Shown here: positions 6,246-21,171 of the stretch, one piece after another | Position numbering within the stretch: the stretch's first letter is position 1 | Layout: each line of letters begins with the position of its first letter | Assembly (NCBI RefSeq): GCF_010894435.1 | Contig: NZ_JAAIXZ010000015.1 | Coordinates: forward strand, 186,001-250,000 | Reading direction: 5' to 3' | DNA from: Pyxidicoccus trucidator | Lineage (GTDB): Bacteria > Myxococcota > Myxococcia > Myxococcales > Myxococcaceae | Length of the DNA: 64,000 nt | The notes under the pieces: generated by a model | Told to the model about the DNA's origin: nothing | The model's input: only the letters and a program-made list of their open reading frames with translations | Database searches by the model: none | Position numbers and translations under genes: made by a program

Positions 6246-6281
6246 GTCCCGCGAACCTTGGGTGCTCAGAGAGGGTGTCTG

Positions 6282-6308
6282 CGTATAAGAGGGGTTTCCT
6301 ACCGTCAA
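6282..6308 (-). promoter_or_regulatory. Candidate promoter of rfbBDAC
   Basis: On the minus strand TTGACG (6303-6308) is followed after 15 bases by TATACG (6282-6287). The spacing is shorter than the usual 16-18. Transcription would start near 6275, giving a 5' leader of about 30 bases before rfbB. Confidence 0.45.
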
Positions 6309-6310
6309 GG

Positions 6311-6346
6311 CGCCAGGGGCTCGGGCTTGTGTGCCCGCCCCTGGCG
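6311..6346. promoter_or_regulatory. Strong hairpin between divergent rfbB and glycosyltransferase
   Basis: An inverted repeat with a perfect 9-base outer stem (CGCCAGGGG, 6311-6319, with CCCCTGGCG, 6338-6346) and an inner 5-base stem (CGGGC with GCCCG) around a TTGTGT loop. It lies 18 bases before the GTG start at 6365, just upstream of the candidate rfbB promoter. It could be an operator or, in RNA, a leader structure masking the ribosome site of the rightward gene. It has no U-tract. Confidence 0.5.
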
Positions 6347-6364
6347 GCTGTAAGGGGACCGGGC

Positions 6365-8035
6365 GTGAGTGCTCAGCGAACCAGCTCCATCCACCAGGTC
6401 CTCCCCCGGCTCGCCTGGGGGGACGCGGTGGGCAACCAGGTGCGCTACCTCCAGGGGCTGCTGCGCCGCTGGGGCTACGTGTCGGAGATCTACGCGGAGA
6501 CGTGGGACGACGCCTGCAAGGACCAGGTGCGCCCGGTGCGTGACTACGCGCGCGAGGCGGGCCGGGACTCAATCCTGCTGGTGCACCACAGCTTCGAGTC
6601 GCGCCTGGTGCCGCTCATCACCCGGGCGCCCGGCCGGAAGGTGCTCGTCTACCACAACGTGACGCCTGCCCGGCTGTTCGAGGGGTTCGAGCGGAAGGTG
6701 GCCGCCGCGTGTGACGGCGCCCGTGACGAGCTGCTGGCGCTGCGGCCCCAGGTGGAGTGTGCCTTCGCCTACTCGCGCTTCAGCGCGGAGGAGCTGGTGG
6801 CGGCGGGGTACCGGAACGTCTCGGTGCTGCCCTTCGCCATCGACTGGACGGCGTTCGACACGGCGCCGGACCCGGTGCTCCAGGCGGAGCTGGGGGACGG
6901 CTGCGCCAACGTGCTCTTCGTGGGGCGCGCGGTGCCGAGCAAGAAGGTGGATGACGTGCTGCGCGTCTTCACCGCATACCAGCGGCTGTACCAGCCGAGG
7001 AGCCGGCTCGTGGTCGCCGGCTATCTGCACCGTGACGGCGCCTATGGGGCCTACCTGCACGGGCTGAAGGACGTGCTCGGCGCGGAGCAGGTGCGCTTCC
7101 TCGGGAGGGTGAGCGCGGCACAGCTCTCCGCGTGCTTCGCTACCGCGTCGGCGTACCTTTCCATGAGCCGGCACGAGGGCTTTGGCGTCCCGCTGCTGGA
7201 GGCCATGTACCGGGGCGTGCCGGTGGTGGCGTACGGGGCCGCGGCGGTGCCGGAGACGATGGGCGGCGCGGGGCTCGCGACGCTCTCGGACGACCCGGGC
7301 GACGTGGCGGAGCTGCTCGCGGTGCTGGAGCGGAGCCCGGCCCTGCGCGAGCAGGTCATCACCGCCCAGCGCGAGCGGCTGGCCACGCTGACCCAGGACG
7401 CCGTGGCCGAGCAGGTGCGGAAGGCCTTCCAGGGAGTGCTCTCCGGGGGCGCGGAAACGTCCCCTGCCCCGTCCCCGGCCGCCTCGGTGGAGCTGGTGTG
7501 CCCGGGCTTCACGCTGCGCCCTGACGACGCCATGTCCCGTCTCGCGCGGAGGATGGCGGAGCGGCTGCCGGGGGCTCGCATCCTTGCCCTCCGTCAACGG
7601 GGCGCGGAGCCCTCCCTGGGCCTGGGCCCCGAAGACGTGGGAGGAGTCCCGGTGTGGCACTTCACTCCGGACCAGCCGCCGCGACGTGAATCGGAGGCGC
7701 TGCCCGGGTCCTCGTCACTGGAGACGGTGGCGCGGGGCTCCCCGGCGTCGGTGCTGCTGCCCGGCTCCTCGTCGCTGGAGACTGCGGTGCGAGTCTCCTC
7801 GGCGCCGGTGGTGCTGCTGGGTACGGACACGCTCGCCGCGCAGGCAGTGCTGCCCCACGTGAAGGAGCGGGCCTGGGGGGTGTACGAGGCCTCGCTTCCC
7901 GGGTCGCTCCTCGAACCTGCACGGCAGCAACTGGGCCGGCGGATGGTGATGCTGGACGCGTCGAGTCCCGACGATGCCCTGCGGGCGATGCTGAGCGCCC
8001 TGCCCTCTACAGCTGGAGGTTCCCGTGCGACCTGA
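6365..8035 (+). CDS. Glycosyltransferase family 4 with extra C-terminal domain
   Basis: A 556-residue cytoplasmic glycosyltransferase starting at GTG 6365, preceded by AAGGGG. Residues about 1-370 form a GT-B fold of the GT4 family: NVLFVGRAVPSKKVDDVL, then SMSRHEGFGVPLLEAMYRGVPVVA, the EX7E-type donor-sugar site. A Pro/Ser linker and a second C-terminal segment of about 180 residues follow, holding a 19-residue tandem duplication. That segment is not recognised. The gene overlaps the next by 11 bases. It probably adds a sugar during O-antigen or other surface-glycan assembly; donor and acceptor are unknown. Confidence 0.88.
   Translation: MSAQRTSSIHQVLPRLAWGDAVGNQVRYLQGLLRRWGYVSEIYAETWDDACKDQVRPVRDYAREAGRDSILLVHHSFESRLVPLITRAPGRKVLVYHNVTPARLFEGFERKVAAACDGARDELLALRPQVECAFAYSRFSAEELVAAGYRNVSVLPFAIDWTAFDTAPDPVLQAELGDGCANVLFVGRAVPSKKVDDVLRVFTAYQRLYQPRSRLVVAGYLHRDGAYGAYLHGLKDVLGAEQVRFLGRVSAAQLSACFATASAYLSMSRHEGFGVPLLEAMYRGVPVVAYGAAAVPETMGGAGLATLSDDPGDVAELLAVLERSPALREQVITAQRERLATLTQDAVAEQVRKAFQGVLSGGAETSPAPSPAASVELVCPGFTLRPDDAMSRLARRMAERLPGARILALRQRGAEPSLGLGPEDVGGVPVWHFTPDQPPRRESEALPGSSSLETVARGSPASVLLPGSSSLETAVRVSSAPVVLLGTDTLAAQAVLPHVKERAWGVYEASLPGSLLEPARQQLGRRMVMLDASSPDDALRAMLSALPSTAGGSRAT
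7700..7813 (+). repeat. 57-bp tandem duplication inside glycosyltransferase
   Basis: Two adjacent 57-base units (7700-7756 and 7757-7813) each encode a diverged 19-residue unit beginning LPGSSSLET. They lie in the unrecognised C-terminal part of the glycosyltransferase. The reading frame is kept. Confidence 0.75.
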
Positions 8036-8699
8036 AGACCTGCTCACCCGCGCACCCTCGCCCGAGGCAGTGGCGCGTGAGACGCGGAAGCTGGCGCAGC
8101 CTTCGGAGGAAGCGCGCGAGGCGCTGCGCCGCTCCCTGGAGGCCGCCGCGAGTCCACCGGCTCCCGCGCCCTGGCCGGCGCTGCTCCAGGAAGCGCGCGG
8201 GAAGATGGACAGCCGCTACGCCGAGCCGGCGACGTCGCACCGGGGCGGGCTCGCGGGGCTGGCGCTGGTGGTGTCGAAGCGGGTCTTCCGCCGCGTCTTC
8301 CAGCCCTTCATCAACGAGGCGCTGCGCAAGCAGGTGGAGTTCAACGAGTCCATCCTCGACGCGCTCGCGACCATCCACGACGTGCAGCGCGAGCACTCGC
8401 GCACCCAGGCCACGTGGCGGCAGGAGCTGGAGCGCAGGCTGGCCCGCATCGAAGCCGCAGCGGAGCGTGCCGCGGCGCATGCACCCTCCGACACCACGCA
8501 CCAGGCCACGAAGCCCTCGGCGAGCAAGTCGTCCGAGCCTGCTCCCGCCAACGCCGCCCGCCAGGCCACGAAGCCTTCGGCGCCCAAGTCGGCCGAGCCT
8601 GCTCCCGCCAACGCCACCCGCGCGGGAGAAGCCTCGCGGCCCCCTCCGCCCGAGCCCGCCCGTGGCGGCACCTCGCGTGGACGCTCCAGGCGGCGCTAG
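8025..8699 (+). CDS. Hypothetical protein with SHR/QxEFN module, polysaccharide cluster
   Basis: A 224-residue protein starting at GTG 8025 with a strong site (GGAGG 5 bases upstream), overlapping the previous gene by 11 bases. Residues 70-118 (SHRGGLAGLALVVSKR, then EALRKQVEFNESI) match a module present at least twice at the N-terminus of the wbgA product. I recall similar SHR...KR...Q.EFN segments ahead of methyltransferase and glycosyltransferase domains in O-antigen clusters. Residues 120-150 look coiled-coil. Residues 160-199 are two 20-residue Ala/Pro/Lys-rich repeats, and the tail is very basic. No enzymatic domain is visible; a membrane-associated adaptor for the neighbouring transferases is a guess. 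Confidence 0.7.
   Translation: MRPEDLLTRAPSPEAVARETRKLAQPSEEAREALRRSLEAAASPPAPAPWPALLQEARGKMDSRYAEPATSHRGGLAGLALVVSKRVFRRVFQPFINEALRKQVEFNESILDALATIHDVQREHSRTQATWRQELERRLARIEAAAERAAAHAPSDTTHQATKPSASKSSEPAPANAARQATKPSAPKSAEPAPANATRAGEASRPPPPEPARGGTSRGRSRRR
8502..8621 (+). repeat. 60-bp tandem duplication
   Basis: Two 60-base units (8502-8561, 8562-8621), each encoding QATKPSA.KS.EPAPANA.R. They form a flexible, Lys/Pro/Ala-rich linker near the C-terminus of the SHR-module protein. Confidence 0.85.
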
Positions 8700-8743
8700 C
8701 GCTGCCCGGGGCGCGGCCCGCTCCCCCCTTCGAGGTACTCCCC

Positions 8744-10933
8744 TTGCGAATCTGTCTCGTCTCCAGAGCGCTCGCGCCATTCTCCGCGGGAGACCTCGCC
8801 GCGTATGTCTCACGGATGTCCCGCGCCTTCGCCGAGGCGGGCCACGAGGTCCACGTCCTCACCGCGCCCCAGCCGGGCCTCGTCGCGGCGGCGGAGACCG
8901 AGCTGCCCGGCGTGCGCGTCCACACCGTGGAGGAGCTGACCTCCGGCTTCGCGGGCGCCTTCTCGCATGCGCCCATCCGCCACGCGATGCAGGTCTACAC
9001 GGCGCTGCGCAGGCTTCACGAGCAGCACCCCTTCGACTTCATCGAGTTCCCCGAGCGCGAGTGCGAGGGCGCCTTCGCGCTCCGAGCGAAGCGCACGCTG
9101 GGCCACTTCGCCTCCGCCGTGCTCGCGGTGCGCCTGCACACGCCCACGGCCGAACTCCAGAAGCTGAACCGCGTCGCCGCGCTGACGCTGGACACCGCGC
9201 AGCAGGAGTTCTTCGAGGCCAGCTCCCTCCGCGAGGCGGACCTGCTCCTCTCCCCCACCCGTGCCCTGCTGGACCGGGTGACGCAGCAGCTCGGCCTCGG
9301 CGACATCGGCGTGGTGGTGCCCTACCCCTTCGCTCCGCTCACCGTGCCCACCGAGCCGCGGCCGCCCCCCGAAACCCTCCCGTGCGTGCGCTACGCCGGC
9401 CCGTTGGAGTACCGGAAGGGCGTCCACCTGCTCATCGACGCCATGCAGGTCCTCTTCGAGCGCGGGCTCCACGCGGAGGTGCGGCTCATCGGCGATGACA
9501 CGCCGACGGGCCCTGCGGGCCGCTCCTATCTTCAGTGGCTGCAGCGGCGCATCGCCCCCGCGTGGAAGGACCGGTTCCACTTCGCGGCGCGCGACACGCG
9601 CACTGAGCACATCCTCACCGGAGCGGCGGTGTGCTGCGTCCCCTCCCTCTGGGACAACCTCCCCTACGAAGGTCTGGAGGCCATGGCCTCCGGCCACCTC
9701 GTGGTGGCCAGCGACGCGGGCGGCCTCGCCGAGCTCATCGAGGATGGCCACAGCGGGCTCCTCTTCCGCACGGGCGACGTGCCGCACCTCGCAGCCGTCC
9801 TGGAGAAGGCGCTCGGAACACCCGCCCCACGAGACACCGCGCGTCAGGCGGCACCAGCGCGCATCGCCCGCCACTGCGACCCGGCGAGCCTCGTGAAGCA
9901 GGTCGAGGAAGCAGTGGCCCGCGCAGCCCCCACGAGGCACCAGGGACCGCCGAAGCCCGCGTCACGGCTTCCGGAGCCCGGCACGCCGCGCGTCTCCTTC
10001 CTGGTGCCCTACTACAACATGGGGCGCTACCTGCCGGAGACGCTGCGCTCCATCCGCGCGCAGACCTTCACCGACTACGAAATCGTCCTCGTGGACGACG
10101 GCTCGACAGACGCGGAGAGCATCGCGCTGCTGGACACGCTCCAGGCGCCGGACCTGCGCATCCTCCGCCAGCGGAACGGTGGGCTCAGCGCGGCACGCAA
10201 CACGGGCCTGCGCGCCGCTCGGGGGCACTACATCCTGCCGCTGGACCCGGACGACCTCATCGAGCCCACCTTCCTGGAGAAGGCGCTGGCGGTGATGGAG
10301 GGCACACCCGGGCTGGCCTATGTCACGTCCCTGGTCGCCTACTTCCGCGAGACGCCAGACAACGTGGTGGGAGGCTGGGTGCCCTCGGGCCTGGACCGCG
10401 ACGCGCTCTGGGTGGTCAACGTGGCGTCCACCTGCACGGCGTTGATGGAGCGCCGGCTCGTGGAGGAGCTCGGTGGCTATGACGAGTGGCTCGCCTCGTA
10501 CGAGGACTGGGACGTCTTCTCCCGGATGGCGGAGCGCGGTCTCACGGGGACGGTCCTCCCGGAGCCCCTCTTCCTGTACCGGCTGCGCCCGGACTCGATG
10601 ACCCGCAGCCTGCGGCTGAACGAGCGTCAGCAGAGCCTCGCGTACCTGAGCCACAAGCACCCCATCCTCGCGCTGGACCCGGGACGCGCCCTCCGCATCC
10701 GCGAAGGCGAGGCCCACAGGCTCGAAGTGCGGCTGCGTGAGGAGGCCGCGGCGGCCATCCCACCGCCCCTGCTCAACCGGGTGGCGGACCGGGTGAATGG
10801 CACCCTCAAGCAGTTCGACTTCCTCCACGACACGCTGCGGCGAGCCGCCCGGCTGGTGGCGCCGGACGCGTCCCGCCCCATCCGACATCAGCTCATGGAG
10901 CGCCTCCGGAAGAAGCCGCCCACCGACTCCTGA
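8744..10933 (+). CDS. Bifunctional glycosyltransferase: GT4 fused to GT2
   Basis: A 729-residue fusion. The start is taken as TTG 8744, with GAGG 8-9 bases upstream, because the first Rossmann strand (RICLVSRALAPFSAGDLAA) begins there; longer frames cover the previous gene. Residues about 1-390 are a GT4 GT-B enzyme (YAGPLEYRKGVHLLIDAM, then LWDNLPYEGLEAMASGHLVV). Residues about 410-650 are a GT2 GT-A enzyme: VSFLVPYYNMGRYLPETLRS, VDDGSTD, NGGLSAARNTGL and LDPDDLIEP as the metal-binding DXD. The two domains may add successive sugars to one acceptor. Confidence 0.9.
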   Translation: MRICLVSRALAPFSAGDLAAYVSRMSRAFAEAGHEVHVLTAPQPGLVAAAETELPGVRVHTVEELTSGFAGAFSHAPIRHAMQVYTALRRLHEQHPFDFIEFPERECEGAFALRAKRTLGHFASAVLAVRLHTPTAELQKLNRVAALTLDTAQQEFFEASSLREADLLLSPTRALLDRVTQQLGLGDIGVVVPYPFAPLTVPTEPRPPPETLPCVRYAGPLEYRKGVHLLIDAMQVLFERGLHAEVRLIGDDTPTGPAGRSYLQWLQRRIAPAWKDRFHFAARDTRTEHILTGAAVCCVPSLWDNLPYEGLEAMASGHLVVASDAGGLAELIEDGHSGLLFRTGDVPHLAAVLEKALGTPAPRDTARQAAPARIARHCDPASLVKQVEEAVARAAPTRHQGPPKPASRLPEPGTPRVSFLVPYYNMGRYLPETLRSIRAQTFTDYEIVLVDDGSTDAESIALLDTLQAPDLRILRQRNGGLSAARNTGLRAARGHYILPLDPDDLIEPTFLEKALAVMEGTPGLAYVTSLVAYFRETPDNVVGGWVPSGLDRDALWVVNVASTCTALMERRLVEELGGYDEWLASYEDWDVFSRMAERGLTGTVLPEPLFLYRLRPDSMTRSLRLNERQQSLAYLSHKHPILALDPGRALRIREGEAHRLEVRLREEAAAAIPPPLLNRVADRVNGTLKQFDFLHDTLRRAARLVAPDASRPIRHQLMERLRKKPPTDS

Positions 10934-11098
10934 GTACGGGGCCGTGGCGCCACCTGCGCGCCCGCCCGCCTGGTCGCCTGGCGAAAATGGGTCGTTAAAT
11001 GAGCATTAAATGGGCGTGTCGATTCGCCAGGAGCTCGTTCGACGTGTCAGTAGAACCGGCACTGAGGCCGGCCCACACGAACCCAGGGAGATACGACG

Positions 11099-11530
11099 AT
11101 GCGCTTCATGATCTTGATCAAGGCCAACAAGGACTCCGAGGCCGCCGTGATGCCCGACGAGAAGATGCTGACCGAGATGGGCAAGTACAACGAGGAGCTG
11201 GTGAAGGCCGGAATCATGCTCGCCGGCGAGGGGCTCCACCCCAGCTCGAAGGGCGCGCGGATCCATTTCTCCGGCAACAAGCGGACCGTCATCGACGGCC
11301 CCTTCTCCGAGACGAAGGAGCTGATCGCCGGCTTCTGGCTGTGGCAGGTGAAGTCGAAGGAAGAGGCCATCGAGTGGGTGAAGCGCTGCCCCAACCCGAC
11401 CGGCGAGGAGTCCGAAATCGAAATCCGCCAGGTCTTCGAGACCGCGGACTTCGGCGAGGTGCTCACGCCCGAGCTCCGTGAGCAGGAGGACCGGCTCCGC
11501 GCGACCGTCGAGAAGCAGCAGCGCGGCTAG
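11099..11530 (+). CDS. YciI/DGPF-family protein
   Basis: A 143-residue YciI-like (DGPFAETKE) protein. MRFMILIKAN opens the ferredoxin-like fold, and VIDGPFSETKELIAGFWLW carries the family signature. Such proteins often sit beside ECF sigma factors of the SigJ type, but none adjoins here. AGGGAGA lies 9 bases before ATG 11099. Its TAG stop (11528-11530) overlaps the TAG of the opposite-strand ELW gene in one CTAG, so the genes abut tail to tail. The biochemical role of the family is unsettled. Confidence 0.88.
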   Translation: MRFMILIKANKDSEAAVMPDEKMLTEMGKYNEELVKAGIMLAGEGLHPSSKGARIHFSGNKRTVIDGPFSETKELIAGFWLWQVKSKEEAIEWVKRCPNPTGEESEIEIRQVFETADFGEVLTPELREQEDRLRATVEKQQRG

Positions 11531-14500
11531 TCAGCCCCTCGGGAGGTGGGCGGAGGGCTCAGCCCTTCGCCGCCCCCAGGCTCGTGTAGACGGTCTGCAG
11601 GCCGTCCGGCCCCACCGACACGCCGATTGGCCAGCAGCGCCAGCAGCGCCAACCCGAGCAGTCCCGTCCCCGCGCCACCGGACTGCTGGCAGCCGCAGCC
11701 GCTCGAGTCGAGAGGCGGTGGCGGTGGGCTCGTACCCGGGGAGCCCGCGTCCGGCCCCTGGCTCCCGGCATCCGCCCCCTGGCTCCCAGCATCCGGCACC
11801 GTGCTACCGCCATCCGGCACCGTGCTACCGCCATCCGGAGTCCCCCCGTCAACGCGGGATGCCGCCTGCACCCGCACCTCGAAGGTGCAGCTCCGGCTGT
11901 TGCCGCTCGTGTCCGTGGCCGTGGCTTGCACCTCGGTGGTGCCCACGGAGAACACGCTGCCCCGCGCAGGAGCGTAGGCCACCGTCACGGCGGCGGAGAC
12001 CGTGTCCGACGCCATCGCCTCCGGCCACTCCACGGCCACTCCCGCCGCGGACGTCGCCGTCGCGGACTGCGCGGGCGGGCACTCCAGGGCCGGAGGCGTC
12101 GTGTCCCGCACGGTGACGGTGAAGGCGCACGTCGCCACATTGCCCCCGCTGTCGGTGGCGGTGACACGCACCTCGGTGGCTCCCAGCGCGAAGGTGCCGC
12201 CACTGGCATGGCTGTAGGCCACCATCGGAGTCTCCCCCGGGTCCGTCGCGGTGGCCGGAGGGTAGCTCACTGGCGCGCCCTGCCCGTTCACCGCCTCCAC
12301 CACCTGCGCTGCGGGACAGGTCACCTGGGGAGGCTCCGCATCCTCCGCCGTCCAGGTCGCCGCCCACAGCTCCACTCCCGAGGTCGCGGTCCAGGCCGGG
12401 AAGTACAGGCGCTGTCCCGACGTCACAAACCAGCGCGGCGCGGACGACGCGACGCCCGGGGCGATATCCGCCACGCGCACCGTGCCCTCAGGCGTGCCAT
12501 TCGTCCGCCACAGCTCCTGCCCGGACAGCCCATCCGACGCGGAGAAGACGAGCGGCCCCGTCGCCCCCAGACGCGTGAAGGGCCCTGGGATGCTGGCGCT
12601 CGTGCCACCACCCTTGCGGAGCTCCTTCACCCGCACCGTACCGGCCGCCGTGCCGTCACTGCGCCACGGCTGGTAGCCACTGGCACCGTCATCGGCCCAG
12701 AACACCAGTGTGTTTCCGAAGGAGGTGAGCTGCACGGGCGGGAGCACCTTCTCGTTCGTCCCGAACGCGCGGACCTTCATCGGGGCGCCGCCATCGCTCT
12801 TCCACAGCTCGGGCGGGCCATTCTGGGGCTCGGCGGTGAAGAAGAGCGTGCTTCCCAGGATGGCCGTGTTCGTCGGCCCGGTCTTCTTCCAGGACTTGGA
12901 GGGCACGGAGCCCAGCAGGCGCGTCCCTGCCGCCGTTCCATCACTCGTCCACAGCGCCCGACCCTGCGTCTCGGTGGTGGCCCAGAAGTAGAGCCGGCCA
13001 TTCATGGCGATGAGGTGGTCGAAGGTGACGCTCTTGTCGGGCGCATCCAGGCCCGTCACCCGCACGGTGCCATTCACGGTGCCATCACTCGTCCACAGCT
13101 CCTCGTGGCGCCAGTCGGTGGAGCCCGTGAAGAAGACCCGCGAGCCCAGCGCGGTGAGCAGCCGGGGCCGCCACCCCGGCGAAGGGAGGGAGACCTGCCG
13201 CAGGCGCAGCGTCCCCCCCGGCGTCCCATCCGTGCGCCAGAGGGAGTCCCCCTCGAAGGAATAGTTCGTGAAGAAGGCCAGTGCGCCCGCGGTGACGACG
13301 GGGCGGTCGTCATTGATCCCGAAATCCATGGGCCCCAGCTGCTGGGGGGCCTGCGCGCTCGCGTCCAGGCTCCAGAGGAAGCGCTCACCCGTGGCGGCGT
13401 CGGTGGCTGCCCCCATGAGGAGCTTTCGCCCGAACCGGGTGAGGTACCTGGGACTCCAGAACGAAGTGGAGCCGCCCACCGCCACCGTGCCCCCCGACGT
13501 GCCGTCGGTCCGCCACAGGCGTTCGCCCTCGCCGTCATTCGCACTGAAGAAGAGCGTCCCCTCCAGGTCCAGGCCCCCGCCGCGCGTATCGAAGCCGAGG
13601 CCGCCCAGCGTGTAGTTGGCGAGCTTCGACACGCGCTGCGTCCCTTGCGTCGTGCCATCGCTCCGCCACAGCTCGTCGTCATCCCCCCAGAAGTGCAGCG
13701 CTCCCTGAGACCAGACGCCGCGCAACCCGGTGAAGTCGAAGTCGGTGGGCGTGTGGTTGGACAGCCGCACCGTCCCCTGGGAGGTGCCGTCCGTCTTCCA
13801 GAGCTCGACGCCGGTGACGCCGTCGTTGGCCATGAAGAACAGGCCCACGGGGGAGGAAATCATCGTCAGGGTTTCGACGTCGTCACTCGCCCATTCAATC
13901 CCCGGCGCCAGATCCGCGACCCGGCTCGTGCCCTGCGGCGTGCCATCGCTCTTCCAGAGCTCATGGCCGGCCGAGGCATCCCAGGCCCAGAAGTAGAACG
14001 CCCCGCCGTGAGGGGTGTAGGTCCCCGGGAACGAGCCCTCGGTACCGGGTGCCAGGTCGGCCATGCGGACGGTGCCGTCCGTCGTGCCGTCGCTCTTCCA
14101 GAGCTCCCGGCCGGCCTCCGCGTCCCAGGCGGAGAAGTAGAACGTGCCTCCGAAGCAGAAGAGCTGGGGCGGGAACTGGGCCCCCGGGGAGGACGGGTCG
14201 GCGGTGTCGATGTCCTTCAGGAGGACCGTCCCCGAGTCGGTGCCATCCGTCCGCCAGAGGGAGTTGCGCCCGAACTCGCGCGCCGCCCAGAAGAGGACCT
14301 TGCCGCCGCACTCGGTGAGCCCGCCGGTGTGCAGGCTGTGGAAGGGCGGCGGGTTCTGCATCACCCTCGTGGTGCCCGCGGGCGTGCCGTCGCTCTTCCA
14401 GAGCGCCATGCCGCGGGTGTCATCCGTCGCCGCGAAGAGGAGCGTGTCCCCCAGCCACGCGTGGGGGTGCCAGCCCACTGTCCCCGACGACGCATGCTCC

Positions 14501-15102
14501 CGGCGCAGCAGCACCGTGCCCTCGGGCGTGCCGTCGCTCTTCCACAGCGAGAAGCCCGAGCTGGGGCTCTCCGAGTCGGTGGTCCCGATGTACAGCACGC
14601 CATTGCGTTGCGTGAGGAAGCTGCCCTGCGCGCGAAGGGACTTCACCAGCACGGTGCCCTGCGCGGTGCCGTCGCTGCTCCACAGGCCGTTCAGATATGC
14701 CCCTGTCGACGCGGCGAGGAAGTACAGCCGCCCGTTCATCACCAGGGAATGGGACGGAGCCGACCCGGCGTAGCCCGGCAGCAGGTCCACCACCATGGAG
14801 GTGCCCCCGGCAGTGCCGTCCGTCCGCCACAGCTCCTGGCCATGGACCTTGTCGCTGGCGCCGAAGAGGACCGTGTTGCCGAGCGCGGCGAACATCGTCG
14901 GCTCTTCGAACACGAAGACGTCCGGCCCCGTGCCAGCGAGGAGGTCCCGCACCTGGAAGGGCGTGCCCACGAGCGCGGCGGAGTGCTCACGCGGCGCGCT
15001 CTCGGGCGCGGCCTTCGTCGCCTTCTCCTCGGCGCAGCCCATACCCAGGCACGCCGCCAGGGAAGCCCCCAGCAGCGCGCGCAGTCCTTGTCCCACGTTC
15101 AT
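11527..15102 (-). CDS. Surface lipoprotein with ELWxxDGT repeats, HYR domains, MYXO-CTERM-like tail
   Basis: A 1,191-residue exported protein. The N-terminus is a lipoprotein signal ending LGMGC (Cys23). About 16 repeats of the form LW(K/R)(S/T)DGTxxGT span residues about 50-920 and probably form beta-propeller-like blades. Two HYR-type immunoglobulin-like domains follow (TCPAAQVVEA..., ECPPAQSATA...), each with DTTPP- or TDSGGN-style motifs. A PDGGSTV/PDAGSQG linker then leads to SSGCGCQQ, a hydrophobic stretch and NRR, which resembles a MYXO-CTERM sorting tail. About 30 further residues after NRR have poor codon quality (see findings). Its role, perhaps adhesion or cell contact, is inferred from architecture alone. 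Confidence 0.85.
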   Translation of the reverse strand: MNVGQGLRALLGASLAACLGMGCAEEKATKAAPESAPREHSAALVGTPFQVRDLLAGTGPDVFVFEEPTMFAALGNTVLFGASDKVHGQELWRTDGTAGGTSMVVDLLPGYAGSAPSHSLVMNGRLYFLAASTGAYLNGLWSSDGTAQGTVLVKSLRAQGSFLTQRNGVLYIGTTDSESPSSGFSLWKSDGTPEGTVLLRREHASSGTVGWHPHAWLGDTLLFAATDDTRGMALWKSDGTPAGTTRVMQNPPPFHSLHTGGLTECGGKVLFWAAREFGRNSLWRTDGTDSGTVLLKDIDTADPSSPGAQFPPQLFCFGGTFYFSAWDAEAGRELWKSDGTTDGTVRMADLAPGTEGSFPGTYTPHGGAFYFWAWDASAGHELWKSDGTPQGTSRVADLAPGIEWASDDVETLTMISSPVGLFFMANDGVTGVELWKTDGTSQGTVRLSNHTPTDFDFTGLRGVWSQGALHFWGDDDELWRSDGTTQGTQRVSKLANYTLGGLGFDTRGGGLDLEGTLFFSANDGEGERLWRTDGTSGGTVAVGGSTSFWSPRYLTRFGRKLLMGAATDAATGERFLWSLDASAQAPQQLGPMDFGINDDRPVVTAGALAFFTNYSFEGDSLWRTDGTPGGTLRLRQVSLPSPGWRPRLLTALGSRVFFTGSTDWRHEELWTSDGTVNGTVRVTGLDAPDKSVTFDHLIAMNGRLYFWATTETQGRALWTSDGTAAGTRLLGSVPSKSWKKTGPTNTAILGSTLFFTAEPQNGPPELWKSDGGAPMKVRAFGTNEKVLPPVQLTSFGNTLVFWADDGASGYQPWRSDGTAAGTVRVKELRKGGGTSASIPGPFTRLGATGPLVFSASDGLSGQELWRTNGTPEGTVRVADIAPGVASSAPRWFVTSGQRLYFPAWTATSGVELWAATWTAEDAEPPQVTCPAAQVVEAVNGQGAPVSYPPATATDPGETPMVAYSHASGGTFALGATEVRVTATDSGGNVATCAFTVTVRDTTPPALECPPAQSATATSAAGVAVEWPEAMASDTVSAAVTVAYAPARGSVFSVGTTEVQATATDTSGNSRSCTFEVRVQAASRVDGGTPDGGSTVPDGGSTVPDAGSQGADAGSQGPDAGSPGTSPPPPPLDSSGCGCQQSGGAGTGLLGLALLALLANRRVGGAGRPADRLHEPGGGEGLSPPPTSRGAD
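11791..11832 (-). repeat. 21-bp tandem repeat coding for PDGGSTV linker
   Basis: Two exact 21-base copies (11791-11811, 11812-11832), with further degenerate copies on the low-coordinate side down to about 11745. They encode the seven-residue Asp/Gly/Ser linker before the MYXO-CTERM-like tail. Confidence 0.8.
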
Positions 15103-15131
15103 TTGATGTCCCCGGTTGGAGAATGTTCGCC

Positions 15132-15162
15132 AGTATACGGAGCCCTCCCCCGGACGGAGGGC
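15132..15162 (-). promoter_or_regulatory. Hairpin after wbgA and candidate -10 for ELW gene
   Basis: GCCCTCC (15142-15148) and GGAGGGC (15156-15162) form a perfect 7-base stem 13 bases beyond the wbgA stop, but without a U-tract. On the minus strand TATACT (15132-15137) follows, 30 bases before the ELW ATG. No good -35 is visible. This may end the wzm-wzt-wbgA transcript and start the next one. Confidence 0.4.
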
Positions 15163-15175
15163 ACGGCGCGGCGCG

Positions 15176-18100
15176 TCAGGCGGCTCCGGCGATGGGGGCG
15201 GTCCGTCCGAGCAGGTGCTCCATCATCCGGTCCACCTGGGCCTCCCAGGTGGTGCGCCGCACGCGCTCGGCGGCGGCGGTGCCCAGGCGCTGGCGCAGCG
15301 CCGCGTCACCCACCGCGCGGCGGAGCTGCGCCAGCACGGAGCCGGGGGTCGGCGCCGTGAGCAGGCAGTTCTCTCCATCGTGGAGCAGCCAGTGGTTGGC
15401 CGGGTTGTCGTTGGTCACCACCGTCATCCCGCTCGCCATCATCTCCAGCGGCAGGTACGAGGGGTGCTTGGTGAACATGAAGCACAGCCCCACGTCGCAC
15501 TCGCGGTACAGCGCGGCGGTGCGCTCGGCGGGGAGCACGCCCAGGTTCGTCACCAGCCCGCGCACGCCGTAGGACTCGGGGTGCCACTCGGCGCCGGCCG
15601 TCACCACTTCCACCGCGGGGCCCAGCTCGCGCTTCAGTCGGGCCAGCGCCGCCAGTCCCAGCTCGAAGCCGTTCCGCTCGTTGCCCGGGCGCCCGTAGAA
15701 GAAGACGCGCACGGGCCCCTGGCGCTCCGGCCGCCGCGCGTGGAACAGCGCCCCGTCCACGGCGGGCTCGAAGGCGAAGCCGTCCATGCCGTGTTGGGCC
15801 TTCACGTAGTCGCGCAGGCCCGGCGTGTTGAAGATGCCCTGGAAGCCCAGCGAGTACGTCTGCTCCGCCAGCGCCCACTGGGTGCCGGCGGCGAAGAACA
15901 TGGGCTCGTAGTCCTGCACGAAGTAGCCACGCACCGCCGCGCGCGGGTGCCGCAGCACCTGGTACACGGAAGTCCAGTAGGTGGCGATGGCCAGGTCGCA
16001 CGCGGGCAGCTCCGCCAGCGCCGCCGGCCCGGACAGCACGCGGAAGGCGCCCGAGGCGCCGGGGAACACCGTGGCCGCGCGAGACTCGAAGTCGCCAGGA
16101 CTGGCGCCCGGCTTGTCGTAGACGACGAAGTCGCTGCGCACGCCGTGGCGCCGGTGCATCAGGTCCGCGAAGCGGAAAATCGTGTGCACGCCCGCGAAGA
16201 CATGGCCGAAGGCCGGCACGAACCACGTGGCCGTCTCCACCTTCCCGCGCGAGCGCAGGGCCGCCAGCGCCGCCGGGGCGGACTCGCGCGACGCCTTCGC
16301 CTGCTCCGGCGTGCAGTCCAGCGCGTCCAGGTGCTCCACGGTGTGGCGCTGCGCCCGGGCGCGCTCCTCCAGCGCCGGGTCCACCGCGCTAGGTACGTCG
16401 CGCGACAGCGTGCGCACGGCCAGCGTCTCACCGTCCTCGGGGTGCTGACGCAGGACGCAGTCGGTGCCCAGCAGCGTGAGGTTCGGGTTGTAGAAGGGGT
16501 CCCCGCGAGCGCCCAGCCACGGGCGATAGGCCACGTAGGACCACCAGTAGTCGGCCTCGGGAATCGCGTCCGCGCGGCGGCTGGCGGACTCGTGGTGGAT
16601 GACGCGCGCGTGCGGCGTGTACACCACGCGCAGGCCGCGCTGGTTCAGCCGCAGGCCGAGGTCCACGTCGCTGCCGCACACCTGGAAGCGCTCGTCGAAG
16701 CCGCCCAGCTCCTCGAAGACGGGGCGGCGGAGGATGACGCACGCGCTGGTGACGGACAGCCAGTTGCGCGTCGACTCGGTGTCGCCGAAGGGCGTGCGGA
16801 GGGGCCCGTCCGGCAGGCGCCAGAAGGGGTGTCCCGCCATGCCGGTGAAGCCCACGACGACGCCCGCGTGCTGCACGGTGCCCTCGGGGAAGAGGAGCTT
16901 GCAGCCCACCGCGCCCACCTCGGGCCGCTGGGCCTGGGACACCAGCTCGTCCAGCCAGCCGGGGTCCACCACCTCCATGTCGTTGTTGAGGAAGAGGAGC
17001 AGCTCGCCCGTGGCCTGCTTCGCCGCCCAGTTGTTGATGGCCGGGTAGTTGAAGGGGAAGTCCCACGTCAGCTTCACCAGCCGGGGGTCCGTCAGCCGCT
17101 CCAGCAGCGCGAAGGTCTCCGGCTTCGTGCTGTTGTTGGAGACCAGCAGCACCTCGAAGTTCGGATAGGTGGTGCGCGACAGCAGGCCCGGCAGCAGCAG
17201 CTCCAGCAGGTCCGGCCGGTCCTTGAACGGGACGATGATGGAGACCTTTGGCGGCGCGCCGCGCACCGGGTAGCGGACGCGGTACCGGCCGGGTGCGAAG
17301 CTCGTCACCTCGGCGGGCTCGCCGGTGCGGGCCAGGTGCTCGCGCAGGGCCCGCGCTCCCGCCTCCGTGGCCGCCTGCCCTGGCTCCGCGTGGGCGCGCG
17401 AGTGGTACAGCACCTTCGGCACGTGGCCGATTCCCCGCGTGGCCTCGCTCAGCCGCAGGACGAGCTCGTAGTCCTCGGCGCCGTCGAAGCCCTCGCGCAC
17501 GCCGCCCACGGCCTCCAGCACGGAGCGCCGCGCGACGAGGAAGTGGCGGATGTAGTTCAGCGAGCGCAGCAGGTCCGGAGACCAGTCCGGCTTGAAGGAG
17601 GGCCCGGTGCGGCGCCCCTCCCCGTCCAGCCGGTCCTCGTCGCTGTAGAGGACGTCCAGCGAAGGCTCCGCCGCGAGCACCACCTCCGCCAGGGCATGCG
17701 GGGCCAGCGTGTCACCGGCCTCCAGGAAGCCCACCCACTCACCGCGCGCGGCGGCCAGGCCCGCGCTCAGCGCCCCGGCGAGGCCACCGTCCCGGCGCTC
17801 GCGAGTCACCACGCGGACGCGCGGGTTGCGCGCGGCGGCCTCGCGCAGCACCGCCGCCACGTGCGGGGCCGTGCTGGCGTCGTCCACCAGCACCCACTCC
17901 CACTCGGGGTACACCTGCGCCTCCACGGAGGCGAGGCCCTCGCGGAGGAAGGCCTCGGGCGTGTCGCGCACGGCCGTGACGAGCGACACCCGGGGCTTCA
18001 CCTCCAGCCGCGCCACCGCGTCGCGCGCGGCGGAGAGGTCGGCAGGCTCCCGCCGGGCGCACCAGCCCTCGTAGTCACCCAGCTCGGGAACCTGGGGCGG

Positions 18101-18964
18101 CGGCGTGCGCGCGCCCAGCACCCCGGCCAGCGCCAGCACCGCCTGCTCGTTGAAGCGCGTCTGCCGGCGCAGCAGCTCGGTCCACAGTGGAGCGCCCGCG
18201 CGCAGCGCCCTGGGCAGGACCTCCGGGCGCAGCGGGTCATTGCGCCCGACGAGCCCGGCCACGGACTTCGCGCCCTCCGCCTCGGACGGCGGCTTTGGCG
18301 CGGCGGCGGCGGCGAGCGCCTCCACCATGGCCGAGTTCCACTCCGCCTGCCCGCGCAGCAGGGCCTCCAGCACCGGACCCGCCGCGGAGAGGTACGAGCG
18401 CTTCGCCGCATCCACCACGGAGCCGAGCGCCCCGCTCCGGTGCGAGCGCACCGACTTCCACCGCGTGGGGTCCGCCTTGGACTCGAGCTGCGCGCGCACC
18501 CAGCCGGACACGTCGTCGCGCAGGCCCAGGCTCCGGTGGACGGACAGGTACTCCAGCACGCGCACCACGGCCTTGTTGAACTCGGCCTGGGGGCGGAGCG
18601 ACTCCACGTGGAAGGGGTGGAGCCCCTCGATGAAGGCGCGCTTGGTGGCCGTCACCATGCGCCCCATGCCGGAGGCGCGGTGCGACTCGGGCACGGTGAA
18701 CTCGTGGGGCACCGCCAGCCGCGAGGCCTCCTGCAACGGGGACAGCGCCTGCGAGCCCGAGGGCCTCGCGCGGTGGAGCTGCTCGGTGAGCAGCCGCAGC
18801 GTCCCCTCCAGCGCGGACACCTCGGCGCACCGCTCGGGCAGGCACGGGCGGCGCGCGTCGAGCAGCGCGCGCACCACGGCCACCATCCGCGCCAGGTCCC
18901 CCGCGCTCGGCGCCGTGTCCGGAGCCACCGCGTCCCCGGAGAGCTTCTCCAGTCCTGTCTTCAC
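15176..18964 (-). CDS. wbgA: Multidomain O-antigen glycosyltransferase (WbgA-like)
   Basis: A 1,262-residue cytoplasmic protein, third gene of wzm-wzt-wbgA, an order known from the M. xanthus O-antigen locus. Residues 90-290 hold two clear and one weak copy of an SHR...KR...QxEFN module. Residues about 325-560 are a first GT2 domain (VSLVTAVRDTPEAFL, LVDDAST, SDEDRLDGEG). Residues about 573-850 are a second GT2 domain (VSIIVPFKDRPDLLE, FPFNYPAINNWAA, FLNNDMEVVDPGWL). Residues about 930-1262 resemble the rhamnan-synthesis/WsaF GT-B enzymes (YFVQDYEPMFFAAGTQWALA). It probably adds several sugars, perhaps rhamnose from the nearby pathway. The start is ATG 18964, 81 bases after wzt. Confidence 0.88.
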   Translation of the reverse strand: MKTGLEKLSGDAVAPDTAPSAGDLARMVAVVRALLDARRPCLPERCAEVSALEGTLRLLTEQLHRARPSGSQALSPLQEASRLAVPHEFTVPESHRASGMGRMVTATKRAFIEGLHPFHVESLRPQAEFNKAVVRVLEYLSVHRSLGLRDDVSGWVRAQLESKADPTRWKSVRSHRSGALGSVVDAAKRSYLSAAGPVLEALLRGQAEWNSAMVEALAAAAAPKPPSEAEGAKSVAGLVGRNDPLRPEVLPRALRAGAPLWTELLRRQTRFNEQAVLALAGVLGARTPPPQVPELGDYEGWCARREPADLSAARDAVARLEVKPRVSLVTAVRDTPEAFLREGLASVEAQVYPEWEWVLVDDASTAPHVAAVLREAAARNPRVRVVTRERRDGGLAGALSAGLAAARGEWVGFLEAGDTLAPHALAEVVLAAEPSLDVLYSDEDRLDGEGRRTGPSFKPDWSPDLLRSLNYIRHFLVARRSVLEAVGGVREGFDGAEDYELVLRLSEATRGIGHVPKVLYHSRAHAEPGQAATEAGARALREHLARTGEPAEVTSFAPGRYRVRYPVRGAPPKVSIIVPFKDRPDLLELLLPGLLSRTTYPNFEVLLVSNNSTKPETFALLERLTDPRLVKLTWDFPFNYPAINNWAAKQATGELLLFLNNDMEVVDPGWLDELVSQAQRPEVGAVGCKLLFPEGTVQHAGVVVGFTGMAGHPFWRLPDGPLRTPFGDTESTRNWLSVTSACVILRRPVFEELGGFDERFQVCGSDVDLGLRLNQRGLRVVYTPHARVIHHESASRRADAIPEADYWWSYVAYRPWLGARGDPFYNPNLTLLGTDCVLRQHPEDGETLAVRTLSRDVPSAVDPALEERARAQRHTVEHLDALDCTPEQAKASRESAPAALAALRSRGKVETATWFVPAFGHVFAGVHTIFRFADLMHRRHGVRSDFVVYDKPGASPGDFESRAATVFPGASGAFRVLSGPAALAELPACDLAIATYWTSVYQVLRHPRAAVRGYFVQDYEPMFFAAGTQWALAEQTYSLGFQGIFNTPGLRDYVKAQHGMDGFAFEPAVDGALFHARRPERQGPVRVFFYGRPGNERNGFELGLAALARLKRELGPAVEVVTAGAEWHPESYGVRGLVTNLGVLPAERTAALYRECDVGLCFMFTKHPSYLPLEMMASGMTVVTNDNPANHWLLHDGENCLLTAPTPGSVLAQLRRAVGDAALRQRLGTAAAERVRRTTWEAQVDRMMEHLLGRTAPIAGAA

Positions 18965-19045: not shown

Positions 19046-20368
19046 TCAGGGATGACCGCCGCCGGCGGCCCGGGGCACGGCGCCCCCGGCCAGCGCGGGC
19101 ACCACCGCCTGCGCCACCGGCGCCGACTCCACCACCCAGCGGTGCGCCGGGCGGAACACGCCCCGCTCCGCCACCGTGGAGCTCACCTGGAAGGTCCGTC
19201 GCTCCGTGGACGCGCCTCCCGAGGAGCGGGCCGTCACCTGGAGGGCATACTCCCCCGCCAGCAGGCCCAGCCGCTCCAGCACGAAGCGCACGCGGCCCTC
19301 CGGAGGAAGCTGTCGTGGCAGCTGCACCTCCTCCAGGAGGGTGCTCGTCTCGTACAGCGGCTTGCCGTCCGCGGTCTGGAGGGACACCTCGAACTCCACG
19401 TCCGTGGCGCGCTCGTCCGCGGTGAAGTCCACGCACACCTCCACCGGCGTCTCCGGTGTCAGCGGCGTGTCCTCGCCCTCGGGCGACGACAGGTGCAACC
19501 GGGTGAGGCGCACGGCCATGGTGGACGACGGCAGCACCTGCGCCGCGCCGGGCACCTGCGGCAGCGCCCCTCCCCCTTCGGTGAGGGCCGGTGGCGTGAA
19601 GGACTGGGACTGGGACTCCGCCAGGGCAATGGCCTGCCGGTACTCGGCCGTCACGTCCGCGGAGCGGCCCACCCGGCGCACGTACCCGCCGTCAATCCAT
19701 GCCGCCAGGTCGCACCACTTGTCCACCGTGTTCAGGTCATGCGTGACGAGGACGATGGTCTTCCCCTGCCGCTTGAAGTCCATCATCTTGGCGAGGCTCT
19801 TCTTGCTGAAGTGCTCGTCGCCCACGGCCAGGATCTCATCGATGATGAGGATGTCCGGGTCCACGTGCGTGGCCACCGCGAAGGCCAGGCGCATGTACAT
19901 GCCGCTGGAGTAGGTGCGCACCGGCTCGTCGATGAACTCGCCCAGTTCGCTGAAGGCGATGATTTCATCCATCCGCGCGCGCACCTCGGCCCGCGACATG
20001 CCGAGGATGATGCCGTTGATGAGGATGTTCTCCCGCCCGGAGAAGTCCGGGTGGAAGCCCGCGCCCAGGTCCAGCAGCGCGGAGATGCGGCCGTTGATCT
20101 GCAAGAGGCCGGAGGTGGGCGTGTAGATGCCGGTGATGAGCTTGAGCAGCGTGCTCTTCCCCGAGCCGTTACGCCCGATGATGCCGACCGTCTTGCCCTT
20201 GGGGATGGTGAGGTTGATACCGCGCAGCGCGGTGATGAGTCCGGCCTCGCGGGCCTGGCGCTTGCCGCGCAGCCAGCGCAGCAGCTCGGACTTGAACGTC
20301 GTGTACTCGCCCCGGATGGTCCGCTTCCGGAAGCTCTTCACGACGTCCTGCATGACGATGGCGTCCAT
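19046..20368 (-). CDS. wzt: O-antigen ABC exporter ATPase with carbohydrate-binding domain
   Basis: The ATPase half of the polysaccharide ABC exporter. From ATG 20368 (AGGAA 4 bases upstream) it has 440 residues; ATG 20380 is an alternative without a ribosome site. Walker A GRNGSGKST is at residues 65-73, the ABC signature is YSSGMYMRLAFA, and Walker B is DILIIDEILAVGD. Residues about 320-440 form an extra beta-rich domain like the Wzt C-terminal module that recognises the O-antigen end, so this exporter probably reads a terminal sugar signal. It follows wzm by about 20 bases. Confidence 0.94.
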   Translation of the reverse strand: MDAIVMQDVVKSFRKRTIRGEYTTFKSELLRWLRGKRQAREAGLITALRGINLTIPKGKTVGIIGRNGSGKSTLLKLITGIYTPTSGLLQINGRISALLDLGAGFHPDFSGRENILINGIILGMSRAEVRARMDEIIAFSELGEFIDEPVRTYSSGMYMRLAFAVATHVDPDILIIDEILAVGDEHFSKKSLAKMMDFKRQGKTIVLVTHDLNTVDKWCDLAAWIDGGYVRRVGRSADVTAEYRQAIALAESQSQSFTPPALTEGGGALPQVPGAAQVLPSSTMAVRLTRLHLSSPEGEDTPLTPETPVEVCVDFTADERATDVEFEVSLQTADGKPLYETSTLLEEVQLPRQLPPEGRVRFVLERLGLLAGEYALQVTARSSGGASTERRTFQVSSTVAERGVFRPAHRWVVESAPVAQAVVPALAGGAVPRAAGGGHP

Positions 20369-20388
20369 GGATTCCTGCATGGCAGCGG

Positions 20389-21171
20389 TCAAATGGACTC
20401 CGCGAATTCCTCGCGGCGGGCTTCGAAGATCATCGACGCGGCCCACAACAGCACGACGGAGAAGACACCCAGCGCCAACAGCGGCGCCGCGTCCGGGAGG
20501 CGGTGCTCATAGAAGAGGGCCTGATACGAGGTGATGATGGGGGCCATGGGGTTCAGCACGAACATCGCCGTGCGCAGCGTCTCGTCCTGGAAGTTGGAGA
20601 GCGGATACAGCACGGGCGTCCCGAAGAACCACATCGTCAGCAGGTTGGTGACGATGTGCTGCAGGTCCCGGAACGTCACGTTGATGGCCGCGAGGATGTA
20701 CGTCATCGCCAGCGTGAAGGTGAGCTGGATGAGGACCACCACCGGGAAGAAGAGGACGTGCCAGGTGGGCCACTGCCCGTAGATGATGCCCAACCCGAGC
20801 ATCAGCGGCAGGGACAGCGTGTAGTTGCAGAGGTTGGTGACCACCACCGTGGTGGGCAGCACCTGGGCGGGGAAGCGGACCTTGGTCATCAGGTCTCGCC
20901 GGTCGCTGATGGCGCTCGCGCCACCGCTGATGGAGCTGGAGAACCAGATCCACGGCAACAAGCCCACGAACATGAAGAAGGCGTAGTTGGGCGTGTTCTG
21001 CCGCATCACCACGGTGAAGAGCAGCGCGTACACCAGCATGTGCAGCGTCGGGTTCAGGAACGTCCACAGGAACCCGAGGAACGAGCCACGGTAGCGCGCC
21101 TTCAGCTCGCGCTGGACGAGGCTGAGCAGCAGGCCCCGATACTGGTACAGCTCACGGACGAGGCGAATCAT
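20389..21171 (-). CDS. wzm: O-antigen ABC exporter permease
   Basis: A 260-residue ABC-2 type inner-membrane permease that carries lipid-linked O-antigen to the periplasm with Wzt. It opens with ELYQYRGLLLSLVQRELKARYRGSFLGFLW, whose amphipathic helix and RYRGSxLG motif are typical, followed by about six membrane segments. ATG 21171 has AAGGGG about 9 bases upstream; a start five codons earlier lacks one. It is the first gene of wzm-wzt-wbgA. Confidence 0.94.
   Translation of the reverse strand: MIRLVRELYQYRGLLLSLVQRELKARYRGSFLGFLWTFLNPTLHMLVYALLFTVVMRQNTPNYAFFMFVGLLPWIWFSSSISGGASAISDRRDLMTKVRFPAQVLPTTVVVTNLCNYTLSLPLMLGLGIIYGQWPTWHVLFFPVVVLIQLTFTLAMTYILAAINVTFRDLQHIVTNLLTMWFFGTPVLYPLSNFQDETLRTAMFVLNPMAPIITSYQALFYEHRLPDAAPLLALGVFSVVLLWAASMIFEARREEFAESI

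What the first reader, a model, noticed from the sequence alone, without database searches (positions are those of the whole stretch)
8025..18964. Shared SHR/KR/QxEFN module in two polysaccharide proteins
Residues 70-118 of the 224-aa protein at 8025 align by eye with residues 93-142 and 173-222 of the WbgA-like enzyme: SHR, then about 14 residues to KR, then (L/A)R.Q.E(F/W)N. A third weaker copy in WbgA (about 250-285) has LLRRQTRFNEQAV. Similar segments precede transferase domains in other O-antigen clusters, as I recall, but their role is not established. A stand-alone copy plus tandem copies in one enzyme suggests a docking or membrane-surface module that organises the assembly complex.
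Basis: partly seen in the sequence, partly recalled or inferred. Interest (0 to 1): 0.65.

Follow-up and report, generated by a model that had tools for sequence, protein, structure and literature searches.

The report
Shared helix in glycan-assembly enzymes
Two proteins in a bacterial surface-sugar gene cluster share a short helical segment that turns out to be an unnamed, widespread part of sugar-chain building enzymes, often encoded right beside the pump that exports the chains, and probably holds those enzymes on the inner face of the membrane.

Summary
The 224-aa protein (S) and WbgA share an SHR–KR–QxxFN segment: once in S, twice in WbgA, plus a third half-copy. A profile built from 51 non-Myxococcota rows finds all four (40.6, 27.1, 20.5, 8.7 bits; best of 1000 shuffles 1.1). 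No Pfam or NCBIfam match over it reaches its cut-off.

It is an unnamed domain of many phyla, stand-alone or N-terminal to methyltransferases (23 of 46 fused proteins) or GT2 enzymes (15 of 46). Statistics and models suggest a basic amphipathic helix running into a coiled coil. Fused forms often follow wzt: in one family searched by profile, 8 of 11 carrier genomes have Wzt_C 217–282 bp upstream.

A membrane-surface assembly module is thus supported as a prediction. Docking of the stand-alone copy onto WbgA as the general role is not: 25 of 30 non-Myxococcota genomes hold one copy. Stand-alones sit beside GT4 genes in Myxococcaceae (12 of 12) and Aminicenantes (16 of 17 tested), but Deltaproteobacteria-type MAG copies mostly lack a glycan neighbour. 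Function is untested; the closest layout is a reversed WbdD-type ruler and terminator.

The parts
8025..8699 (+). S, 224-aa stand-alone protein; N-terminal helices, module, long helix to residue 152, low-confidence P/K/A-rich tail
8223..8390 (+). module copy in S (residues 67-122; SHR, KR, QxEFN)
15176..18964 (-). WbgA-like enzyme, 1262 aa: module copies 1-3, GT2, GT2, WsaF-like GT4
18536..18697 (-). WbgA module copy W1 (residues 90-143)
18308..18454 (-). WbgA module copy W2 (residues 171-219)
18125..18193 (-). WbgA half-copy W3 (residues 258-280; RRQTRFN)
19046..20446 (-). Wzt, ABC transporter ATPase with Wzt_C domain; its end lies 81 bp before the start of WbgA
20389..21300 (-). Wzm, ABC-2 permease (overlaps the mechanical ORF of wzt; the true start of wzt may be later)
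6275..8035 (+). GT4 glycosyltransferase, overlaps the start of S by 11 bases; a GT4 lies upstream in 12 of 12 Myxococcaceae stand-alone loci tested
8744..10933 (+). GT4-GT2 glycosyltransferase downstream of S (start at 8744 is my reading of the sequence; the mechanical ORF starts at 8414)

Best explanation
The segment is an unnamed helical module. Its first half, after the SHR cap, is a basic amphipathic helix that lies on the inner face of the cytoplasmic membrane. Its second half, from QxxFN on, starts a coiled coil. It therefore acts as a surface anchor and oligomerisation seed that keeps enzymes of polyprenol-linked glycan assembly at the membrane, close to the lipid-linked chain and to the Wzm/Wzt exporter. 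In half of the fused relatives sampled the payload is a C-terminal methyltransferase on a coiled coil of varying length, a reversed version of the WbdD ruler and terminator. In WbgA the payload is the polymerase candidate (GT2-GT2-GT4), held by tandem copies. In S there is no payload, and S most likely serves the GT4 encoded just before it. Shown: homology of the copies, distribution, architectures, gene order. Predicted: helix, amphipathicity, coiled coil. Inferred: membrane contact, recruitment, any effect on chain length.
For: Homology. Architectures: 23 of 46 fused proteins match Methyltransf_23, 15 of 46 GT2, 3 of 46 FkbM. Gene order: Wzt_C lies within 1.5 kb upstream on the same strand for 16 of 37 copies in 15 of 30 genomes, 13 of them at 194-370 bp; about 0.01 expected. 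In one family searched by profile 10 of 11 carrier genomes have Wzt_C within 1.8 kb, 8 of 11 just upstream. Wzx (PF01943, E up to 1e-10): the nearest match on a contig that bears a copy is about 54 kb away (G173; my reading). Structure: one helix 76-152 in S; helices 99-145, 179-220 and 252-264/266-283 in WbgA. Composition over 70 sequences: net charge +4.0 per 18 residues (range +1 to +6), moment z 1.8 for the helix start; the basic columns I picked fall at 220-360 degrees and 11 of the 13 hydrophobic columns picked at 20-200 degrees of the helical wheel. Linkers to the methyltransferase 57-240 residues in 22 proteins, Pro+Gly 4.2% against 11.4% in the enzyme domain, heptad-like periodicity z>1.64 in 15 of 22. 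Precedents: WbdD carries a coiled-coil ruler and a membrane-associated amphipathic helix with a polymerase recruitment site (passages of PMC11231755); PglH has a basic amphipathic membrane helix (passages of PMC5792488).
Against: No membrane binding, oligomerisation or glycan phenotype was measured. The moment of the helix start is moderate (z 1.8) and that of the five other windows tried is weaker (z 0.6-0.9). Models are monomers with shallow alignments (53 and 19 rows). Among neighbours of stand-alone copies in Deltaproteobacteria and other MAGs 8 of 17 are Peripla_BP_2-like, against 2 with GT2 and 2 with GT4 domains, and one Sumerlaeota region shows release-factor, amylase-like and amidohydrolase genes, so the module is not confined to glycan loci. 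At genome level the link with Wzt_C in the one family tested is weak (10 of 11 against 56 of 93; one-sided p 0.04): the link is one of adjacency. The 30 genomes were picked by me.
Confidence: 0.55

Rival explanations
1. The basic helix is a lipid-carrier grip: its K/R ladder (columns 13/14, 17/18, 21) binds the pyrophosphate of the polyprenol-linked glycan, as the PglH ruler helix does, and so presents the chain to the enzyme; membrane binding is a by-product.
For: Basic residues about one turn apart on one face, net charge of the helix start never below +1 over 70 sequences; PglH precedent (K68, R72, K75; passages); frequent neighbourhood of GT4 genes or fusion to methyltransferases.
Against: Stand-alone copies with no glycan gene beside them. 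No structure with ligand; the ladder is equally expected for plain membrane binding.
Confidence: 0.2
2. The module binds the transporter itself (Wzt or Wzm) and hands the finished chain over.
For: Many fused copies are encoded directly after wzt.
Against: In one search only 1 of 12 Myxococcaceae stand-alone loci and none of the Aminicenantes loci except L064 show a Wzt-like gene within the 8-kb locus; one carrier of the family tested shows no Wzt_C at E up to 1e-5 (G244).
Confidence: 0.14
3. Homotypic docking: S pairs with the tandem copies of WbgA and scaffolds the polymerase.
For: By my count, a stand-alone and a WbgA-type copy lie on one contig about 7-16 kb apart in 21 of the 25 genomes of the window's genus (3 others have them on different contigs, 1 shows only a half-copy); both are predicted helical.
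Against: 25 of 30 non-Myxococcota genomes have only one copy, so pairing of different copies cannot be the general role.
Confidence: 0.1
4. No common module: a chance or convergent likeness of helical, charged segments in high-GC proteins.
For: Helical low-information segments can look alike.
Against: 0 of 2000 shuffles for five of six pairs; 1.1 bits best of 1000 shuffles against 8.7-40.6; 117 of 118 pattern matches in other genomes read in frame as module proteins.
Confidence: 0.01

Closest known systems
WbdD-type chain terminators (E. coli O9a / Klebsiella O3, O5) and the O4, O7, O12 terminators
   Same: Terminator at the far end of a long coiled coil; in WbdD a membrane-associated amphipathic helix at the other end; ABC-transporter pathway (passages of PMC11231755).
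   Different: Order reversed: the module is N-terminal and the methyltransferase C-terminal. The methyltransferase finds PDB 3dli best; no WbdD chain was listed. No kinase family among the 25 of 31 Pfam families shown.
PglH ruler helix (Campylobacter N-glycan GT)
   Same: Amphipathic helix with basic residues about one turn apart, at the membrane surface (passages of PMC5792488).
   Different: PglH's helix is an internal part of its glycosyltransferase fold; here it is a separate module followed by a coiled coil, or a protein of its own.
Myxococcus xanthus RfbC/WbgA of the rfbABC (wzm-wzt-wbgA) O-antigen operon
   Same: Same gene order in the window; a record titled Myxococcus xanthus carries the module in the same kind of enzyme (L150). 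That rfbC is WbgA is recalled; the 1996 paper was seen only as a reference-list entry and is not held.
   Different: None of my literature searches named its N-terminal region as a module (searches listed in Tried and rejected).
WsaF rhamnosyltransferase (S-layer glycan)
   Same: WbgA C-terminal GT4 matches WsaF_C, E 6.5e-30.
   Different: WsaF concerns the catalytic end, not the module; its paper was seen only as search listing and start of abstract.

Membership tests
WbdD-type ruler and terminator proteins (for the methyltransferase-fused relatives) | catalytic domain separated by a coiled coil from the membrane/polymerase end | tested here: met
   22 proteins: module, 57-240 residue Pro/Gly-poor linker (heptad-like in 15 of 22), methyltransferase; coiled coil is a prediction
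WbdD-type ruler and terminator proteins (for the methyltransferase-fused relatives) | methyltransferase homologous to WbdD | tested here: inconclusive
   Best PDB relative 3dli; WbdD not listed at E 1e-3 (phmmer) or 1e-8 (profile)
WbdD-type ruler and terminator proteins (for the methyltransferase-fused relatives) | stops chain growth and sets chain length | not testable with these tools
   needs mutants and glycan analysis
WbdD-type ruler and terminator proteins (for WbgA and S) | carries a recognisable terminator domain (methyltransferase or kinase) | tested here: not met
   WbgA has GT2, GT2, GT4 only; S has no catalytic family
ABC-transporter-dependent (Wzm/Wzt) glycan systems | gene next to wzm and wzt with Wzt_C domain | tested here: met
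   WbgA 81 bp after wzt in the window; many fused relatives. Not met for most stand-alones outside Myxococcota
PglH-like ruler helix | basic amphipathic helix with basic residues about one turn apart | tested here: met
   (by sequence only)
PglH-like ruler helix | binds the pyrophosphate of the lipid-linked glycan | not testable with these tools
   needs binding assay or structure
a named Pfam-A or NCBIfam family over the module | match over the module residues that reaches the curated cut-off | tested here: not met
   In WbgA no match shown lies over residues 1-310; in S only sub-cut-off matches touch the region (PF09720 15.9 bits against 23.3; five NCBIfam models 10.7-17.6 bits, all far below their cut-offs); L060 has one sub-cut-off coil match. 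Coordinates for most members were not shown
known fold of the WbgA N-terminal bundle | clear match in solved structures | tested here: inconclusive
   no Foldseek match with E under 0.001; VIA-align best Z 9.1 to a designed helical bundle, within the range the tool gives for any helical bundle

The most novel reading that the evidence does not exclude
An unnamed domain marks a second, reversed class of chain-length rulers in Wzm/Wzt-dependent glycan assembly across Gram-positive and Gram-negative phyla: membrane or lipid-carrier dock at the N-terminus, coiled-coil ruler, terminator at the C-terminus, encoded right after wzt; in Myxococcaceae the same dock, in tandem, moved to the polymerase and also became a free subunit of a GT4.
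Probability: 0.35. Interest if true: 0.75.

Novelty: new variant of a known kind. Interest (0 to 1): 0.6.

Why it matters
ABC-transporter-dependent glycans include O-antigens, capsules and S-layer glycans. How their cytoplasmic enzymes are gathered at the membrane is, to my knowledge, worked out for a few enteric systems only. A short, recognisable module placed right after wzt in several phyla would let one find the terminator or polymerase in uncharacterised clusters by profile alone, and would make the ruler idea testable in Gram-positive and myxobacterial systems. It also gives a function to test for a family of small proteins without a named domain.

Tried and rejected
That pattern fixes S, H, R, G, K, Q, F and N and their spacing, so conservation of those letters in A3, A5 and searches is ascertainment; searches used profiles instead. 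Plasmid tblastn with the module found nothing; with a module-methyltransferase (L051) it found 43 records, of which the 40 listed do not cover the module. The PDB profile search found one weak match (E 0.24), taken as chance. Matches L033 and L034 look like chance by eye; L063 is a chance match and was dropped from all counts; L175 (E 0.24) was not followed. Fold searches gave no clear relative of the WbgA bundle; S was not fold-searched. One search translated minus-strand loci on the wrong strand and was redone for those needed; one search took the wrong domain rows and was redone. Genome-level co-occurrence with Wzt_C is weak (p 0.04); adjacency is the signal. The 290-aa limit between long and short frames was set after seeing the data. 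One search scored at most 45 candidates per genome, so its counts are lower bounds. Literature: searched by gene and protein terms in open-licence PMC papers and listed nothing that names the module; the module has no name to search by, and InterPro, CDD and PANTHER were not available, so I do not claim that it is absent from print.

Rows left out: A3 holds S and 63 of the 117 loci rows (near-duplicates dropped by eye); A4 46 of 47 fused rows (second copy in L068 dropped); A5 S, L006 and 51 of 63 stand-alones; A8 17 of 20 downstream neighbours found at 23 Aminicenantes/Acidobacteria-type loci (upstream ones not scanned there, apart from one); A9 11 of 12 upstream and 6 of 9 downstream neighbours found at 18 Deltaproteobacteria and other MAG loci; A10 18 of 23 neighbours found at 16 Bacillota, Nitrospirae-type and Sumerlaeota loci (L117 among them is a frame cut by its contig end); A11 12 of 12 upstream neighbours (downstream not scanned). 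Pooled searches do not tell which member matched, apart from the first.
Full report
WHAT WAS CHECKED. The finding names a 224-aa protein (S, 8025-8699 +) and a 1262-aa WbgA-like enzyme (15176-18964 -). Both ORFs exist. The window lies on contig C15 of an unnamed 12.7-Mb genome. Named records with the closest module proteins are Myxococcaceae. Neighbouring genes are rml-like nucleotide-sugar genes (label recalled, not scanned), two glycosyltransferases flanking S, and wzm-wzt-wbgA. WbgA starts 81 bp after the end of wzt.

OBSERVATION. Pairwise scores of the copies lie far above shuffles (0 of 2000 for five of six pairs, 1 of 2000 for W1/W3). Profiles recover the copies from one another: with four copies as seed, the untrained W3 comes up at E 0.044, and W3 of 16 orthologs at 0.0017-0.056 by my count. 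A pan-phylum profile with S as its only row from this genome finds W1 (6e-14), the C5 paralog (1e-10), W2 (1.6e-6) and W3 (0.06). With every Myxococcota row removed (51 rows left), S scores 40.6 bits, W1 27.1, W2 20.5 and W3 8.7, against 1.1 for the best of 1000 shuffled proteins. W3 is a half-copy: only the RRQxxFN part is kept, and it recurs in most WbgA-type relatives aligned.

DISTRIBUTION. Thirty of 41 genomes (the own one included) have a match at E up to 0.1, two of them (G033, G035) chance by eye. In 146 genomes of the phylum 65 have one at E up to 0.01; by my count of the listing, 61 of 65 genomes of the window's own family and four others. Titles name Paenibacillus, Cohnella, Desulfosporosinus, Aminicenantes, Acidobacteria, Sumerlaeota, Nitrospirae and Nitrospinae, Rokuibacteriota, Deltaproteobacteria and Myxococcaceae. 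No Pfam or NCBIfam match over the module reaches its curated cut-off; S has a few sub-cut-off matches that touch it, such as PF09720 at 15.9 bits against 23.3. The PDB profile search gave one weak match, E 0.24.

ARCHITECTURES. Of 46 fused proteins, 23 match Methyltransf_23, 15 GT2 and 3 FkbM. In 22 methyltransferase proteins with a full or nearly full domain the linker between QxxFN and the enzyme is 57 to 240 residues, median 160.5, poor in Pro and Gly (4.2% against 11.4%), with heptad-like periodicity above z 1.64 in 15 of 22. The enzyme domain is closest to PDB 3dli, deposited simply as a methyltransferase. Stand-alone frames, read from stop to stop, mostly have about 130-220 residues, some in Myxococcaceae more.

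GENE ORDER. In 30 non-Myxococcota genomes that I chose from these loci there are 37 copies, one copy only in 25 genomes. Wzt_C was found in 30 of 30 (2 of 14 control genomes). Sixteen of 37 copies in 15 genomes lie within 1.5 kb downstream of Wzt_C on the same strand, 13 of them at 194-370 bp; about 0.01 copies would be expected. Copies near Wzt_C are mostly long frames (14 of 16 at least 290 aa), the others mostly short (16 of 21; p 1.4e-4, limit set after seeing the data). The flippase family PF01943 (E up to 1e-10) has no match nearer than about 54 kb on a contig that bears a copy, by my reading. As a test free of my choice of genomes, the family of one Paenibacillus carrier was searched by profile: 11 of 104 genomes have the module, 10 of these have Wzt_C against 56 of the 93 others (p 0.04), and in 8 of 11 Wzt_C lies 217-282 bp upstream, in 2 it lies 1.7-1.8 kb downstream, in 1 (G244) it was not found at E up to 1e-5. 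In the 8-kb loci, 15 of 29 fused rows outside Myxococcota show a Wzt-like gene (8 of the 29 had under 1.3 kb upstream flank), 14 of 18 fused rows in Myxococcota do, 1 of 12 stand-alone rows in Myxococcaceae does, and 5 of 58 stand-alone rows elsewhere do, two of the five being frames cut at the 3' end.

STAND-ALONES. Their neighbours differ by lineage: GT4 upstream in 12 of 12 Myxococcaceae loci, GT4 in 16 of 17 downstream neighbours tested in Aminicenantes/Acidobacteria-type loci, GT4 in 9 and ABC transporter in 3 of 18 neighbours in Bacillota, Nitrospirae-type and Sumerlaeota loci. In Deltaproteobacteria and other MAGs 8 of 17 pooled neighbours match Peripla_BP_2, 2 GT2 and 2 GT4. One Sumerlaeota region shows peptide-release-factor, amylase-like and amidohydrolase genes. 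So the glycan link is strong for fused forms and for several stand-alone lineages, and weak or absent for others. Beside the second stand-alone of this genome lie GT4-like frames; no other window-type glycan gene was found within its 20 kb.

STRUCTURE. The S model (mean pLDDT 77.4) shows one helix from residue 76 to 152, starting just after SHR, then a low-confidence tail. The model of WbgA 1-310 (pLDDT 80.5, pTM 0.69) shows helices 99-145, 179-220 and 252-264/266-283 for the three copies. Over 70 sequences under 70% identity the first 18 helix residues carry a mean net charge of +4.0 and a moment z of 1.8, the five other windows tried z 0.6-0.9; from F34 hydrophobic columns follow at 38, 41/42, 45, 49, 52. 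On a helical wheel the basic columns I picked fall at 220-360 degrees and 11 of 13 hydrophobic ones at 20-200. Fold searches were uninformative.

MECHANISM. The simplest reading is a membrane-surface helix that seeds a coiled coil and holds enzymes of glycan assembly at the membrane. [quoted passage not shown] The methyltransferase relatives look like WbdD reversed. M. xanthus O-antigen is made by the Wzm/Wzt pathway (passage of PMC7484181). Single-copy genomes argue against pairing between different copies as the common role. Membrane contact, partners and effects on chain length are inferred, not shown.

VERDICT. Observation confirmed, interpretation partly supported. It is an unnamed module of a known kind of machine in a new arrangement. 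Interest 0.6.

Noticed in passing
L058/L209 and L092/L211, and other members of alignment A9: In Deltaproteobacteria and other MAGs the stand-alone module gene tends to follow a ~310-aa gene; 8 of 17 pooled neighbours match Peripla_BP_2 (shown one by one only for L058/L209 and L092/L211), a pairing with no evident glycan link.
   Followed up: partly
L145:1204-3432 (+): A 743-aa frame reads by eye as a radical-SAM-like protein, then an SHR module with two further Q..FN half-repeats 18 and 25 residues on, then a further tail (label recalled); the half-repeats resemble the W3 half-copy of WbgA.
   Followed up: no
G000 contig C5, 130499-130657 (-); L002, L206: A second stand-alone module protein (278 aa) with a long P/A/K-rich tail follows a GT4-like gene.
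   Followed up: partly
window 11527-15102 (-): A 1191-aa protein rich in ELWxxDGT repeats lies between wbgA and the other glycosyltransferase genes, with a YCII-like small ORF at 11099-11530 beside it (labels recalled).
   Followed up: no
window 8501-8620 (+): The tail of S holds an imperfect tandem repeat of 20 residues (QATKPSA.KS.EPAPANA..R), in a low-confidence part of the model; the tails of the C5-type orthologs vary in length.
   Followed up: no
L218:5181-7394 (-): Next to an Aminicenantes stand-alone and its GT4 and GT2 genes lie an AAA ATPase and a CAP12/Pycsar TIR-domain protein.
   Followed up: no
L204, L222; G173 contig C24 63529-64988 (-): Two module copies in neighbouring frames (open frames 389 and 394 aa) in one Nitrospiria genome; one frame matches the methyltransferase profile, the other was not resolved there.
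   Followed up: no
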